In this document: piece by piece, positions 5,581-11,609 of the stretch
Layout: each line of letters starts with the position of its first letter
Numbering within the stretch: the first letter of the stretch is position 1
NCBI GenBank assembly: GCA_949283305.1
Contig: CASDRU010000012.1
Location: 1 to 61,618 of the forward strand
Source of the DNA: an uncultured Spirochaetales bacterium
GTDB lineage: Bacteria; Spirochaetota; Spirochaetia; Sphaerochaetales; Sphaerochaetaceae
DNA: 61,618 nt
Direction of reading: 5' to 3'
The notes under the pieces: model-generated
Databases searched by the model: none
What the model was told of the DNA's origin: nothing
What the model saw: only the letters and a program-made list of their open reading frames with translations
Position numbers and translations under genes: made by a program

Positions 5581-5634
5581 TTAACTTTTCAATCGACTGA
5601 TTGTAAATGTGGCTTACTTTTGCCAGGAAGCATC

Positions 5635-5663
5635 TTGATAAGTAATGTTTTTTTCCCGATAAT
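5635..5663 (+). promoter_or_regulatory. Promoter, -10 placed 6 nt before the start codon
   Basis: TTGATA (5635-5640), 17 nt, GATAAT (5658-5663), then 6 nt to the ATG at 5670. The transcription start would fall on or next to the start codon. The surrounding 40 bp are closely similar to the promoter at 6167-6195. Confidence 0.7.
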
Positions 5664-5669
5664 TTAAAA

Positions 5670-5903
5670 ATGTCATACATCGATGAACTTCAGAAAAGAT
5701 ATGAATCAGAAGGAAAAGGATTTATCCGAATAACAAATAAAGATCTTGTGTGTAAAGATTGCATGTATATGCATGATGATTCAGTGATATTTTGGAATAC
5801 TTCCAGATGTGACTTTTATCCAGCACATAAACCAAACTCAATTCTGAGAGGAAAAAGCTGCACTTACTATTTCAAAGGAGATAAAAAACCATGTGCACAT
5901 TAA
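5670..5903 (+). CDS. Small cysteine-rich protein of unknown function
   Basis: 77 residues with C-x2-C (CKDC, near residue 29), a third cysteine in TSRCDFY, and CTYY plus CAH near the end. The spacing suggests a zinc- or iron-binding fold. I do not recognise a named family, though similar short cysteine proteins are common as uncharacterised genes in gut anaerobes. It begins 6 nt after a well-formed -10 box and has no Shine-Dalgarno, so it is probably translated from a leaderless mRNA. It overlaps the next small gene by 13 nt. Its promoter is a near copy of the one in front of the AlbA_2/OLD/helicase operon, which hints at shared regulation. Confidence 0.6.
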   Translation: MSYIDELQKRYESEGKGFIRITNKDLVCKDCMYMHDDSVIFWNTSRCDFYPAHKPNSILRGKSCTYYFKGDKKPCAH

Positions 5904-6139
5904 GACTTTATCACACCATGACCCTGGAAAGCCCCAATAAAGCAAACATAACTATTATTGACGATAAAATATATGCGACAGATGAAGACGGAAAAGGGCT
6001 TTACTCTCTAGGACCTCCGCAAATGGCAAAATACAAAGGTGAAGGTACTCTGATTGATGAAAATTTCAAACTAAGAAAAGGGTTAAGGAAAAAGACTATA
6101 AAAAGAAAAATAACTGAGCGAGTATCTCAGTTATCTTGA
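5891..6139 (+). CDS. Small basic protein of unknown function
   Basis: Up to 82 residues, ending in a very basic segment (KLRKGLRKKTIKRKITER). The middle, ITIIDDKIYATDEDGKGLYSLGP, looks like a short beta-rich fold. The first ATG overlaps the preceding gene by 13 nt and has AAAGGAG about 10 nt upstream; a second ATG at 5918 is also possible. The stop codon lies just after a 9-bp hairpin that may end the transcript. No function can be assigned. Confidence 0.5.
   Translation: MCTLRLYHTMTLESPNKANITIIDDKIYATDEDGKGLYSLGPPQMAKYKGEGTLIDENFKLRKGLRKKTIKRKITERVSQLS
6110..6134 (+). terminator. Hairpin over the end of the small-gene pair
   Basis: A 9-bp perfect stem, ATAACTGAG / CTCAGTTAT, with a 7-nt loop, inside the last codons of the gene ending at 6139. 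What follows is only moderately U-rich, so termination is plausible but weak. Confidence 0.45.
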
Positions 6140-6166
6140 TTTTACTTACTATCGGAAGAAAGCATA

Positions 6167-6195
6167 TTGATGAGCAATGTTCTCCTTCCGATAAT
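6167..6195 (+). promoter_or_regulatory. Promoter of the AlbA_2/OLD/helicase operon
   Basis: TTGATG (6167-6172), 17 nt, GATAAT (6190-6195), followed by AAAGGAG (6205-6211) and the ATG at 6218. The flanking bases (GCAT before the -35, AATGTT in the spacer, CCGATAATT at the -10) match the promoter at 5635-5663, so this is a second copy of the same module. Confidence 0.7.
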
Positions 6196-6217
6196 TAAGA
6201 AACCAAAGGAGAATCAG

Positions 6218-7684
6218 ATGATAAGTACATTGATAGCTGAGGCAACTGTTTGTGATTTCAAAGAAGCACTTGAGGTAAAAAAGCCAAAAAGCTGGCTCAA
6301 GAGCGTCAGTGCTTTTGCAAACACAGCTGGCGGGACTCTCTTCTTTGGTGTTGATAATTCTCACAACGTCGTAGGCCTATCAGATCCGCAGAAGGATGCT
6401 GAAGACATAAGTAGACTCATCAAGGAAAGGATATCTCCGACTCCACGATTCATCCTCACAGCTGAACAGGAATATGGAAAAGCTGTACTCGTTCTTTCAA
6501 TTCCAAAAGGAACTCACACGCCATACTACTACAAAGCTGATGGAATCAGGGAAGCATATATCAGGCTTGGAGATGAAAGTATTGTGGCTCCTGAGCACAT
6601 ACTTCATGAGCTTATCCTAGACGGAATGAATGAGTCCTTTGACGCTATCATTTCAAAATATGATGCTGATGACTTTGCATTCTCTAAACTCAGGGAGCGT
6701 TATAGAAGATGGACTGGTAAAAGCTTCAATGCCAAGTTTCTAATGTCCTTTGGGCTGGTTGATGAAAATACGAATAAACTCACCAATGCAGGTGCACTCA
6801 TAGCAGATGATTGCCCGCTTAGGCAGTCAAGACTCTTCTGCGTAAGATGGAATGGGCTGACAAAAGCCGGAGGCCTTATAGATGCCATTGACAGTGCCGA
6901 ATACACAGGAAGCCTGATTCTCCTGCTTGAAAATGGTATGAACTTCATTAAACGCCATAATAGGATGATGTGGAGAAAAGCTCCTACTTCCAGAATAGAA
7001 ATGCCCGAGTATGAAGAAAGAAGCTGCCTTGAAGCACTCGTCAACGCCCTCGTCCATCGCTCATATTTAGAGCTTGGAAGCGAGGTTCATATCGATATTT
7101 TCGATGATAGAATGACCATCTATTCCCCAGGAGGAATGGCCGATGGAAGTATCATACAAGACCAGAAACTTAGTGAAGTATCTTCTAAAAGACGTAACCC
7201 AGTGCTTGCTGATGTATTTGCTCGTCTTGGCTACATGGAACGACAAGGAAGCGGACTTGAGAAGATCATCGAATGGTATCAGGTATGTGCGAACTATACA
7301 AAAGAGAATTTGCCTACTTTCTCATCCACTTCTTCACAATTCATTGTGTCATTACCAAACCTGAATTATGGCAAGAATACAGTACTTTATGAAAAAAAAC
7401 AGGACTCTGAAATAGAAAAAACAGGACTCTCGGAAGAAAAACAGGGTTATGAAGTCCTGCTTAATACATTATCTCTAACCAAACCAACATATAAGAATAT
7501 AATGGCGCTATATAATCAATTTGGATTCGCAGAGCCATTTTCAAGAGGTGATGTTGTCACAGTCTGTGGTATAACAAAATCTCCTGCCAGCTCTCTTTTG
7601 AACTTAATGAAGAGACTTAATTTGATAACTCCGGTTAATAAGGGGCACGGACAGTATATGCTCCAAAACCCGAAACAAAGGTAG
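6218..7684 (+). CDS. AlbA_2 / HATPase domain protein
   Basis: About 488 residues. The N-terminal AlbA_2 (Schlafen-like) domain shows DFKEALEVKKPKSWLKSVSA and FANTAGGTLFFGVDN around residues 15-55. A GHKL-type ATPase-like domain follows, with SCLEALVNALVHRSY near residue 270, then IYSPGG. A winged-helix-like C terminus ends the protein. Family members are usually annotated as putative DNA-binding, ATP-binding regulators, and many lie in mobile or defence islands. I start at 6218 because of the AAAGGAG site; a longer reading from 6167 would begin inside the promoter. It is 10 nt upstream of the OLD-type nuclease gene and probably co-transcribed with it, so it may be a regulator or a third component of that system. 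Confidence 0.82.
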   Translation: MISTLIAEATVCDFKEALEVKKPKSWLKSVSAFANTAGGTLFFGVDNSHNVVGLSDPQKDAEDISRLIKERISPTPRFILTAEQEYGKAVLVLSIPKGTHTPYYYKADGIREAYIRLGDESIVAPEHILHELILDGMNESFDAIISKYDADDFAFSKLRERYRRWTGKSFNAKFLMSFGLVDENTNKLTNAGALIADDCPLRQSRLFCVRWNGLTKAGGLIDAIDSAEYTGSLILLLENGMNFIKRHNRMMWRKAPTSRIEMPEYEERSCLEALVNALVHRSYLELGSEVHIDIFDDRMTIYSPGGMADGSIIQDQKLSEVSSKRRNPVLADVFARLGYMERQGSGLEKIIEWYQVCANYTKENLPTFSSTSSQFIVSLPNLNYGKNTVLYEKKQDSEIEKTGLSEEKQGYEVLLNTLSLTKPTYKNIMALYNQFGFAEPFSRGDVVTVCGITKSPASSLLNLMKRLNLITPVNKGHGQYMLQNPKQR

Positions 7685-7694
7685 GAGAAACGAT

Positions 7695-9320
7695 ATGTAT
7701 ATAGAACGCCTGATTATCCGAGGCTATAAGATCCTAAAAGACCTTGATATCACTTTAAAAGAAAAGATGAATATATTTATCGGAGAAAATGATTCAGGAA
7801 AAAGCAGCGTCCTTGAAGCAATTCAAATTGCAACAAGGGGAAGGCTGGGACGAACCTCTATAGATAATTTGATTTCTCCAAACATATTTTCAAAATGCAA
7901 TCGCGATTCATATATTAATGCTTTGAACAGCAATGGTACAAAACCACTCCCCGAGATTCTTATAGAGATATACTTCAATGATCAAGAGAAAAAATACTCA
8001 ATACTTCGCGGTACTAATAATTGTTTATCTCTTGATTCTCCTGGTATTCGCATCAAAATTGAGTTTGATGATACATATTCGGAAGTTTACAAAGCCATGC
8101 TTGAAAGTAAACAAATAAAAGATATACCAGTTGAATACTATAAGGTTTCAAAAACATATTTCAGTGGAGAGATAATAAATTATCGGACACCTTTATATCG
8201 GGTTGAATTGATGGACACTTCTCGACATGATTATTCCAATACAACAGATCGATATATTTCTTCAGTCCTTGACTCATACCTTTCAGAAGAAGAAAAAGTA
8301 ATAATAAAATCCTCATATAATCAAGCCATATCGGATTTCAGAAATAATGAGACAGTCAAAGATATCATCAAAAATATAAGGTTGGAATCGTTGGAAGCCA
8401 TGCATTTTGGAACAACAGAAATCCAAGCGAAAAATGATGTATTACAATCAATTAGTGATAAATTGGAGATTATCCATGAACTAATACCTCTGTCTTACCA
8501 GGGCACAGGTACACAAAATCTTATTCAAGCTGCACTTTATCTAGACTGCAAAAACACAGTTCATGCATTGATGATAGAAGAACCAGAAAATAATCTATCA
8601 TTCTCAAATCTTCATAGACTAATTCAAATAATCCAAAGTGGTAATCAACAGATATTCATAACTACACATAGTAGCTATATAACAAATCACTTAGGACTAA
8701 ATAATGTAATTCTTTTACATCTGGGACACGCAACAAGTTTCACAGATTTAGCCGATTCGGATGCTGAATTCTTTCATAAGCTACCAGGCTATGACACACT
8801 AAGATTTGTTCTTTCGACAAAAGTTATTTTGGTGGAAGGCCCATCTGATGAATTGATACTTTCCAGAGCTTATATTGACATCAAAGGTAAAGAACCTAAA
8901 TTAGATGGTATCGATATACTTTCCATCAATGGTCTTGTTTTTAAGCGATTTTGCGCAATTGCAAAACTACTATGCAAGAAAGTTGCGATTGTAACAGATA
9001 ATGATGGAGATATTAAAGCTCTAAGAGAACGATACACCGATATATTAAGTGCTTCAGAACTGTTTTCTTTATTTTACGATTCAAATGAAACACTAAATAC
9101 TCTTGAACCATCGGTAGTAAATGCAAACAGTAATTCCCCTGAAGATTTCCAAAGATTTTTATCTATAGTGTCTCCCAAAAAGAAAATGGACAAAGATACT
9201 CTGATAACATACATGCAAAACAACAAAACGGACTGGGCTCTGAAAGTTCTGGAATCATCATTAAAAATAATATATCCCGAACATATTCAAAAAGCTGTTG
9301 AATGGTGGAGTAGTAATTAA
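7695..9320 (+). CDS. OLD-family ATPase-TOPRIM nuclease (GajA-like)
   Basis: 541 residues. The ABC-type ATPase half has Walker A GENDSGKSS near residue 30, a signature-like QGTGTQNLIQAALYL, Walker B ALMIEEPENNLS and the switch histidine in IFITTHSSYI. The C-terminal TOPRIM half has VEGPSDE and TDNDGD, so the metal-binding glutamate and DxD are present. This is the class 2 OLD layout, as in GajA of the Gabija anti-phage system, and a helicase gene follows directly. It is somewhat shorter than GajA (about 580). The start has AGGAGAAACG upstream. Nuclease function in phage defence is inferred from family and context. Confidence 0.85.
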   Translation: MYIERLIIRGYKILKDLDITLKEKMNIFIGENDSGKSSVLEAIQIATRGRLGRTSIDNLISPNIFSKCNRDSYINALNSNGTKPLPEILIEIYFNDQEKKYSILRGTNNCLSLDSPGIRIKIEFDDTYSEVYKAMLESKQIKDIPVEYYKVSKTYFSGEIINYRTPLYRVELMDTSRHDYSNTTDRYISSVLDSYLSEEEKVIIKSSYNQAISDFRNNETVKDIIKNIRLESLEAMHFGTTEIQAKNDVLQSISDKLEIIHELIPLSYQGTGTQNLIQAALYLDCKNTVHALMIEEPENNLSFSNLHRLIQIIQSGNQQIFITTHSSYITNHLGLNNVILLHLGHATSFTDLADSDAEFFHKLPGYDTLRFVLSTKVILVEGPSDELILSRAYIDIKGKEPKLDGIDILSINGLVFKRFCAIAKLLCKKVAIVTDNDGDIKALRERYTDILSASELFSLFYDSNETLNTLEPSVVNANSNSPEDFQRFLSIVSPKKKMDKDTLITYMQNNKTDWALKVLESSLKIIYPEHIQKAVEWWSSN

Positions 9321-9336
9321 CGTGGGGAATAATGTT

Positions 9337-10452
9337 ATGCACATAGAGGTTGCAGGATCAGGTAAGACTTATGGAATCTGCAATGCCATCATCTCAAAAG
9401 GACGTCCACAAGCAGGACGGAAAGTTCTTGTCATTTCTTATACAAATAATGGGTGTAACTCATTAAAAAAGGAATTTCGGCTACAGAACAACGGAGTGAT
9501 TAGTGATTATGTTGATATTTACACTTGGTATCATTTCCTTCTCGTGCATCTTATTAAGCCATATCAATCATATTTTCCAGGGATTGGAATAAATCAAATT
9601 AAATCAATTGATTTTTCAGGTGATGAGAAAAAGAGTTTTGGAGAAAGAACAAGGCGCTATAAGCATACTAATAAAAACTTATATTTGAATTCATCTTCCA
9701 TGCTTTTAAGGGATTTCGCTAGCGAATTAGCGAATCGCTTGATACAGGAATCTGATAACAAGGTAATTCATCGATTAGAGGATATATATGAAGATATCTA
9801 CTTTGATGAAGCCCAAGATTTGGCTGGATATGATATTGAGATAGTTAAATCATTGTTTCAGTCCAAGCTAAATGTTACCTTAGTTGGAGATCCATTACAG
9901 GCTACTTTTGCAACGAACAACAATAATCAGAAAAACAAGAATTACTGTGGAGCGAATATCGAAAAACTTGCCAGCTTATGTAAGATACCTGTTACACATA
10001 ACACTGTTTCCCGAAGATGCAATGAGGCAATATGCAAGTTCGCAATGAGTATCAGCAATCCATTATATCAAATTATATCTGGTAATAACGAAATATGTAG
10101 TCATAGCGGTGTCTTCTTGATTGCAAGCAAAGATGCAGAAACATATTACAACTTTCTAAAACCACAATGTTTGATATGGAATAAGAACACAAAAATAAAA
10201 TTTGGAGAATTCCTAAATTTCGGGGCATCAAAAGGGATGACATTTTCCCATACGATGTTATCCGGAACTAAAAAACTGCAAGATTTTATCTTGAACGATA
10301 AACCTCTAGATCACCCAGAAAAGTACTACGTGGCTGCAACTCGAGCACGATTCAGTGCTTGCATTGTCGTTGATAGCCTTCCTGATAACGAACATAATAA
10401 AATACAATTTGATGTTGGCAATAAGAAAATTTGGCTATATCGACTCTATTAA
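9337..10452 (+). CDS. Short UvrD-like helicase (GajB-like)
   Basis: About 371 residues, a compact superfamily 1 helicase. Motif I is EVAGSGKTYG within ten residues of the start, Ia VLVISYTNN, II YFDEAQDLAG, III VTLVGDPLQATF, V GASKGMTFSHT and VI YYVAATRARF. It is much shorter than GajB (about 490), so parts of the 1B/2B subdomains must be missing or reduced. I start at the ATG at 9337, since GTGGGGA lies 8 nt upstream; a start at 9298 would overlap the nuclease gene and has no site. The pairing with an OLD-TOPRIM nuclease makes it the second component of a Gabija-like system. Confidence 0.8.
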   Translation: MHIEVAGSGKTYGICNAIISKGRPQAGRKVLVISYTNNGCNSLKKEFRLQNNGVISDYVDIYTWYHFLLVHLIKPYQSYFPGIGINQIKSIDFSGDEKKSFGERTRRYKHTNKNLYLNSSSMLLRDFASELANRLIQESDNKVIHRLEDIYEDIYFDEAQDLAGYDIEIVKSLFQSKLNVTLVGDPLQATFATNNNNQKNKNYCGANIEKLASLCKIPVTHNTVSRRCNEAICKFAMSISNPLYQIISGNNEICSHSGVFLIASKDAETYYNFLKPQCLIWNKNTKIKFGEFLNFGASKGMTFSHTMLSGTKKLQDFILNDKPLDHPEKYYVAATRARFSACIVVDSLPDNEHNKIQFDVGNKKIWLYRLY

Positions 10453-10623: not shown

Positions 10624-10827
10624 TTATTGCCAATCACTTTGCGATCTATATTGATCTATTATAATAGTATATTTATGGTGAATCCCTTTTCGATTTCGAT
10701 TAACAGTACAATAAAATGAAGATAACGATCTATGCATTTGTTTTGCACAATCTTCTGCATTACCAAATGCAACAATTGAATCAGTTTTATTTTCATAAAT
10801 CGTATAATAATGAACAGGGTTCTTCAT
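10624..10827 (-). CDS. Small phage-type protein of unknown function
   Basis: About 67 residues beginning MKNPVHYYTIYENKTDSIVA. The pattern 'xYxIYDNKTDxxVAxGxAxECAKxM...SLxSFY' recurs in small uncharacterised proteins of phages and integrated elements and looks like a NUMOD-like DNA-contact module. The ATG overlaps the stop codon of the restriction-enzyme remnant (ATGA), so the two were translated together. The 170 bp between it and the helicase gene show nothing recognisable. Confidence 0.55.
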   Translation of the reverse strand: MKNPVHYYTIYENKTDSIVAFGNAEDCAKQMHRSLSSFYCTVNRNRKGIHHKYTIIIDQYRSQSDWQ

Positions 10828-11462
10828 TTCCAATATTCCTCAAGCGTTATTATTGTAGATGGCATTCCAACAATTTGAATATCAAATTTCAAACTAGGTT
10901 CAACAATTGTAGAAGCATTATGTATTCTAAAAGATAGTTGCCAGCCATTATCAAGATATAATTCTACAATATGCTTTTTCCCTGGTGCGAAGTCTAATTT
11001 AATAATTCTTGTTGGCAATGTGACCTCATAAAATCGAATTTCTTTTGATTTTTTTCCTAGTGTACCTTTGAAATTATAAACTTGAACAATCGTTAACCGA
11101 TCCTTATCCAGTCCGATTGATTTATAAAAATCATATTTAGCAAACAAATACTCAATAAGTCGTGTAGGAATATCTTTTCCATGTGAATAATATTGTCTAT
11201 TAATTTCAGCTGTGAATGCTTTAAGAAGAGGATAATAAACTGAATCAAACTTATCAGTTAGTTCATTCCACTTTATCCCTTTTCTCTGCAAATCATACAA
11301 CCTGTTAAATATTGGGAGTATCGTTTCCCAATACTCGTTTGAACATTTATACCCAAACCATTTAAGCGAAAAATCTAGTTTAGGTCCAAGTCTGCTGTGT
11401 TTTACAGTGGGCAAGATAAATAAGGGCCGTTTACGTTCAAAATATAACTCTTGAAATATCAA
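10824..11462 (-). pseudogene. HaeIII-family restriction endonuclease, N-terminally truncated
   Basis: 212 codons match the C-terminal two-thirds of HaeIII-family (GGCC-type) restriction endonucleases. Recognisable blocks are VKHSRLGPKLDFSLKWFG, YYPLLKAF, LIEYLFAKYDFYK and, near the end, RIHNASTIVEPSLKFDIQ. Family members carry about 130 more residues before the VKHSRL block, including the catalytic region, and none is present here. The first dozen residues look like unrelated sequence read by chance. No cytosine methyltransferase gene is present. A decayed remnant is the best reading. The family assignment is from remembered motifs. Confidence 0.75.
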
Positions 11463-11470
11463 TATGTTAT

Positions 11471-11513
11471 AGCGTTTACGTTTGAAAGGGCTTTACCCAC
11501 AATCGTAAACGCT
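11471..11513. repeat. 10-bp perfect inverted repeat at the restriction-gene break
   Basis: AGCGTTTACG (11471-11480) and CGTAAACGCT (11504-11513), separated by 23 nt that include a small GGG/CCC hairpin. It lies immediately beyond the point where HaeIII-family similarity stops and upstream of a strong rightward promoter. It could be an operator for the divergent units or the end of an inserted or deleted element. Confidence 0.55.
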
Positions 11514-11580
11514 GTTTCCTGGGTAGTATTCCTCCCTTTTCCCACATCATAGTGATGTTTCTAAGTCTAAATAATTTGTA

Positions 11581-11609
11581 TTGACAATTAACAAATGTAA
11601 CATTATTAT
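11581..11609 (+). promoter_or_regulatory. Near-consensus sigma-70 promoter
   Basis: TTGACA (11581-11586), 17 nt, TATTAT (11604-11609). It precedes AAGGAGGT at 11619-11626 and a TTG start at 11632, so it drives the HTH/CoiA-like/lipoprotein operon. Confidence 0.82.

What the first reader, a model, noticed from the sequence alone, without database searches (positions are those of the whole stretch)
6218..10452. AlbA_2/ATPase + OLD-TOPRIM nuclease + short UvrD helicase: a three-gene Gabija-like defence operon
The nuclease has an intact ATPase and TOPRIM residues and the helicase has motifs I, Ia, II, III, V and VI, so the pair resembles Gabija (GajA/GajB). Two features differ. The helicase is only about 371 residues, with motif I within ten residues of its start. 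An AlbA_2/HATPase protein is joined at the front with a 10-nt gap. The third gene may be a regulator or an integral component.
Basis: partly seen in the sequence, partly recalled or inferred. Interest (0 to 1): 0.68.

Follow-up and report, generated by a model that had tools for sequence, protein, structure and literature searches.

The report
Short-helicase Gabija behind a Schlafen gene
This is an ordinary two-gene Gabija anti-phage system of a common short-helicase kind that sits, in this one spirochaete lineage, directly behind a separate Schlafen-type gene; the third gene is a neighbour rather than a conserved part of the system.

Summary
The three genes are real and co-directional: ORF1 (6218-7684, SLFN_AlbA_2 + HATPase_c_4, 488 aa), gajA (7695-9320, 541 aa) and gajB (9337-10452, 371 aa; GTG 9322 would give 376). 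GajA and GajB match whole PADLOC Gabija models (488 and 283 bits); the best GajB model is itself only 369 positions long. In 85 related gajA-gajB pairs from many phyla the helicase frame is about 375 aa, so the short helicase is the norm of this subtype; it lacks the 2B-type accessory domain of the studied Bacillus cereus GajB. The AlbA_2 gene is not a conserved component. Among about 90 related pairs only one (Paenibacillus) has an AlbA_2 gene upstream and one downstream; other upstream neighbours are varied defence genes. ORF1 orthologues (about 69-87% identical) occur in seven genomes without this gajA, under purifying selection. The ORF1-gajA junction recurs in one other species, at the same chromosomal site, where gajA is cut off after 30 codons. 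Best reading: a known two-gene Gabija subtype placed behind a resident Schlafen/HATPase gene, probably co-transcribed with it. New member of a known kind; low interest.

The parts
6110..6134 (+). terminator-like inverted repeat in front of ORF1, separating it from the two small upstream ORFs
   Evidence: consensus match only
6167..6195 (+). promoter-like site TTGATG-N17-GATAAT in front of ORF1
   Evidence: the region just upstream of ORF1 is conserved in the G062 and G047 orthologues; consensus match only
6218..7684 (+). ORF1: Schlafen AlbA_2 + HATPase_c_4 protein with a variable C-terminal part (488 aa), resident gene upstream of gajA
7695..9320 (+). gajA: OLD-family ABC ATPase + TOPRIM nuclease (541 aa)
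9337..10452 (+). gajB: short UvrD/Rep-like SF1 helicase-fold protein without the 2B-type domain (371 aa; 376 if GTG 9322 is the start)
10824..11462 (-). neighbour, not a component: remnant of a HaeIII-type restriction endonuclease, only profile positions 113-298 of 298

Best explanation
gajA-gajB (7695-10452) is a two-component Gabija system of the widespread short-GajB subtype, acquired by this spirochaete lineage immediately behind a resident Schlafen AlbA_2/HATPase gene (ORF1) and probably read from ORF1's promoter. By analogy with B. cereus Gabija, GajA assembles into a tetramer held inactive by nucleotides and GajB docks on it; phage infection relieves the inhibition and GajA's TOPRIM site nicks DNA. 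The short GajB keeps the two RecA-like cores and the 1B-like part but lacks the 2B-type accessory domain, so it is more likely a DNA-responsive ATPase partner than a processive helicase. ORF1 belongs to the COG2865-type Schlafen-HATPase-wHTH family, which is common in defence islands and has a life of its own. Shown: family, domains, residues, gene order, lack of conserved linkage, purifying selection on ORF1. Inferred: co-transcription, complex, nuclease action, phage defence.
For: PADLOC GajA PDLC00102 5.1e-147 over 1-537 and GajB PDLC00148 6.2e-85. Invariant K36, E295/E296, H325, E381, D435, D437, E471, K511 in 59 GajA, the kinds of residues shown to matter in B. cereus GajA (E379, D511, K541; PMC8136825; the residue-to-residue mapping is inferred). 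The GajA model aligns over 1-541 to solved GajA 8x5i/8sm3 (Z 18.4/17.9, rmsd 4.9/5.6, 422/429 residues). The GajB profile's best PDB match by sequence is GajB 8sm3 (1.5e-14). 85 related pairs have GajB frames with median 375 aa and usually a short overlap with gajA. Upstream neighbours are varied (HsdS, ResIII, Eco57I, Fic, SMODS-like, TdeIII). ORF1 orthologues sit in other genomes with unrelated neighbours, while only 4 of 139 family genomes have this GajA. ORF1 dN/dS about 0.07-0.13.
Against: A second species (G047) keeps the same ORF1-gajA junction beside the same ecf/bioY genes, with the gajA start 80% identical over 30 codons, so the arrangement predates one species split. One Paenibacillus (L043) has a different AlbA_2 gene 98 nt upstream. 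B. cereus GajA itself was not among the PDB hits of the GajA profile at E 0.001; the closest was Thermus OLD. No function was tested.
Confidence: 0.85

Rival explanations
1. ORF1 is a dedicated regulator or third subunit of this Gabija lineage: its wHTH/HATPase part senses infection and controls expression or activity of GajAB.
For: 10-nt gap with gajA's ribosome site overlapping the ORF1 stop; no terminator-like site between ORF1 and gajA; the junction recurs in G047; a Paenibacillus pair also has an AlbA_2 gene upstream.
Against: ORF1 orthologues with the same core live without gajAB; G062 shares ORF1's C-terminal part yet has no gajA of this kind; about 90 other pairs lack it; B. cereus gajA and gajB alone suffice in a heterologous host (PMC8136825).
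Confidence: 0.08
2. A composite operon of two independent defences: ORF1 is a Schlafen-type RNase effector that shares a promoter with Gabija. This is compatible with the best explanation and concerns what ORF1 does.
For: ORF1 keeps acidic residues (E8, D13, D46) in the pattern of the Schlafen active site E-x4-E ... D; the Schlafen + minimal histidine kinase + wHTH architecture is described as a widespread defence-linked effector (PMC12839542).
Against: The equivalents of positions 13 and 46 vary among homologues; RNase activity is untested; many such proteins are annotated as regulators or helicase-related.
Confidence: 0.3
3. The pair is a DNA-repair OLD nuclease/helicase, not a defence system.
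For: Structural Z is higher for UvrD/Rep/PcrA (24.0-23) than for GajB (18.1), and Thermus OLD tops the GajA list.
Against: Sequence profiles prefer Gabija clearly; the distribution is sparse and patchy (8 of 393 genomes in the phylum) with restriction and other defence genes as neighbours.
Confidence: 0.04

Closest known systems
Gabija (GajA/GajB) of Bacillus cereus VD045
   Same: Gene pair, order, ABC ATPase + TOPRIM nuclease, UvrD-like partner, catalytic-type residues, whole-length fold match
   Different: GajB about 120 aa shorter, lacking the C-terminal accessory (2B-type) domain at residues 314-416 of the B. cereus protein; low sequence identity; an unrelated gene co-directional upstream
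PADLOC GajA PDLC00102/PDLC00098 with GajB PDLC00148/PDLC00140 (short-GajB Gabija)
   Same: Near full-length matches; same sizes (532/534 and 369/365 positions); gene overlap as in about 85 relatives
   Different: Only the upstream ORF1
COG2865-type Schlafen AlbA_2 + HATPase_c_4 + wHTH proteins
   Same: ORF1 has both Pfam domains and a variable C-terminal part
   Different: Here followed directly by gajA; the wHTH itself was not matched by a Pfam model in ORF1
OLD nucleases (Thermus scotoductus OLD 6p74)
   Same: GajA fold and TOPRIM motifs; Z 20.7 over 414 residues
   Different: Here paired with a helicase-like gene, as in Gabija

Membership tests
Gabija | GajA: N-terminal ABC-type ATPase domain and C-terminal OLD-like TOPRIM in one protein | tested here: met
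   AAA_15, AAA_21 and OLD-like_TOPRIM; GajA model 5.1e-147 full length; whole-length fold match to 8x5i/8sm3
Gabija | Intact ATPase and TOPRIM catalytic-type residues | tested here: met
   K36, E295, E296, H325, E381, D435, D437, E471, K511 invariant in 59 homologues
Gabija | GajB: UvrD-like SF1 helicase-fold partner encoded next to gajA | tested here: met
   GajB model 6.2e-85; best PDB match by sequence is GajB; fold matches 8sm3_B, Z 18.1, rmsd 7.6 over 308 residues, with UvrD/Rep higher
B. cereus-type (long GajB) Gabija | GajB with the C-terminal accessory (2B-type) domain | tested here: not met
   Profile alignment jumps from chain residue 253 to 418; no such insertion in the model. It is not a requirement of Gabija as a whole: PADLOC's own short models and 85 relatives are equally short
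Gabija | GajA4-GajB4 complex, nucleotide-inhibited DNA nicking, phage protection | not testable with these tools
   Needs expression and assay; only single chains can be predicted here
   One AlbA_2 (no HATPase) upstream and one AlbA_2/HATPase downstream in about 90 loci, plus a decayed syntenic copy in G047
Schlafen AlbA_2/HATPase (COG2865-type) | SLFN_AlbA_2 and HATPase_c_4 domains above Pfam cut-offs | tested here: met
   84 and 84 bits against cut-offs of 25 and 26
Schlafen AlbA_2/HATPase (COG2865-type) | RNase-type acidic triad | tested here: inconclusive
   E8, D13 and D46 present; only E8 is strongly conserved in homologues; matching to Schlafen13 residues is by motif, not by structure

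The most novel reading that the evidence does not exclude
In this spirochaete lineage a Schlafen-HATPase protein has been recruited as a sensor/regulator or second effector of Gabija, so that the three genes work as one unit.
Probability: 0.1. Interest if true: 0.5.

Novelty: new member of a known kind. Interest (0 to 1): 0.2.

Why it matters
It shows that the short-GajB form is a normal, widespread Gabija subtype lacking the 2B-type domain, which is useful because the studied B. cereus GajB is the long form. It also warns that tight spacing alone does not make a third gene part of a defence system: ORF1 has its own distribution and is under its own selection.

Tried and rejected
A viral-contig scan with GajA found no relative, and phage records gave only two weak GajB matches in Listeria phages, so there is no sign of a phage-borne source. 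A PDB search with single GajA found mostly Rad50-type ATPase heads; a profile was needed. Literature searches for Gabija with AlbA_2 or Schlafen found no report of the three-gene unit. I considered the 11408-11517 stretch as an element marking an insertion edge, because in G046 it follows an ORF1 orthologue directly, but it is a dispersed upstream region found in 12 of 48 genus genomes, in several beside relatives of the gene at 11581, so the edge is only suggestive. Fold rank alone was not used to name GajB, since UvrD, Rep and PcrA score above it.

Full report
Observation. The three frames exist as described. ORF1 most likely starts at ATG 6218 behind AAAGGAG; the longer TTG start at 6167 is the -35-like hexamer of a promoter-like site. 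gajA follows after 10 nt with AGGAG overlapping the ORF1 stop, and gajB overlaps or nearly abuts the gajA end. A terminator-like repeat lies in front of ORF1 and none between ORF1 and gajA, so a joint transcript is likely but inferred.

Identity of the pair. Gene 2 matches PADLOC GajA over its whole length (488 bits) and gene 3 matches GajB (283 bits); the two best GajB models are 369 and 365 positions long. The plasmid relatives of Planococcus, Lactiplantibacillus, Nocardioides, Rhizobium and Xanthomonas are plain gajA-gajB pairs. A scan of genome contigs gave 80 more loci. Over 85 pairs the GajB frame has a median of 375 aa, range 336-409 apart from two truncated ones, and usually overlaps gajA.

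What is missing from the short helicase. In B. cereus GajB the C-terminal accessory subdomain covers residues 314-416 of 494 (PMC10681800). The short-GajB profile aligns to it at 10-253 and 418-474, skipping that part, and the predicted model (pLDDT 93.6) has only short loops there. Motif I near the start is not a difference, since the alignment to B. cereus GajB also begins at residue 10. By sequence the best solved relative is GajB; by fold the UvrD, Rep and PcrA structures score higher (Z 24-23 against 18.1), which reflects a shared helicase core.

GajA. Fifty-nine homologues keep the Walker, H-loop and TOPRIM residues. The model (pLDDT 89.1) aligns over its whole length with solved GajA and with Thermus OLD. 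A profile of six did not recover B. cereus GajA in the PDB by sequence at E 0.001, so the two subtypes are distant. In a quick tree the window's GajA groups with Bacillota sequences (13 rows, SH-aLRT 98) and apart from the other spirochaete copies, which fits lateral acquisition.

Is the AlbA_2 gene part of it? Among the related loci, a profile of ORF1 homologues finds AlbA_2 genes beside the pair twice: upstream in Paenibacillus L043, without HATPase, and downstream in L044. A third weak hit in L102 is distant from the pair. The other close upstream neighbours include HsdS, ResIII/HSDR, Eco57I, Fic, a SMODS-like gene, TdeIII and others: the pair sits behind whatever defence gene is there. Conversely, ORF1 orthologues of about 69-87% identity occur in G062, G046, G012, G067, G075, G039 and (broken into pieces) G055, all without this GajA and with unrelated neighbours; the intact ones tested are under purifying selection against ORF1 (dN 0.08-0.23, dS above 1.2).

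One related case. In G047 an ORF1 with a frame break lies beside the same ecfA-ecfT-bioY genes as in the window, and is followed by the first 30 codons of gajA, 80% identical, after which gajA is lost and a fragment of a second ORF1 copy follows. So the arrangement existed before these two species parted, and decayed in one. It is one event at one site, not recurrent linkage; because G047 may be a draft assembly, the frame break itself could be an assembly error.

What ORF1 is. Both its domains score far above Pfam cut-offs. Such Schlafen + minimal histidine kinase + wHTH proteins are described as widespread defence-linked candidate RNase effectors (PMC12839542), and AlbA_2 proteins also occur in Argonaute operons (PMC6299218). 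ORF1 has acidic residues at E8, D13 and D46 in the pattern of the Schlafen13 triad; only E8 is strongly conserved, so RNase function is possible, not shown. The last 120 or so codons diverge sharply in several orthologues while the core stays roughly 65-90% identical in DNA, as expected for a variable C-terminal domain.

Verdict. A Gabija system of a known, common subtype, placed behind an independent Schlafen/HATPase gene.

Noticed in passing
window 10824-11462 (-): HaeIII-type restriction endonuclease remnant lacking the first third of the domain; no C5 DNA methyltransferase (PF00145) match was found in the whole genome, so it is probably dead.
   Followed up: partly
window 5613-5670 and 6143-6200: A 58-nt direct repeat, 76% identical, with a promoter-like site in each copy, in front of the small ORF at 5670 and in front of ORF1.
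   Followed up: partly
window 11408-11517: Stretch found in 12 of 48 genus genomes, in several upstream of relatives of the HTH-domain gene at 11581; carries an inverted GTTTACG/CGTAAAC.
   Followed up: partly
window 6218-7684 and L152-L159: ORF1 orthologues share a conserved core but have diverged or exchanged C-terminal ends in several genomes.
   Followed up: partly
L158 about 6640-7870 (reverse strand): In G047, a piece of a second ORF1 copy and a short hydrophobic reading frame lie where the rest of gajA should be.
   Followed up: no
L076, L105: Short-GajB Gabija pairs directly behind type I restriction specificity (HsdS) genes.
   Followed up: no
window 5670-6139: Two small overlapping ORFs (77 and 82 aa), the first with a weak cysteine-rich zf-like match.
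   Followed up: no
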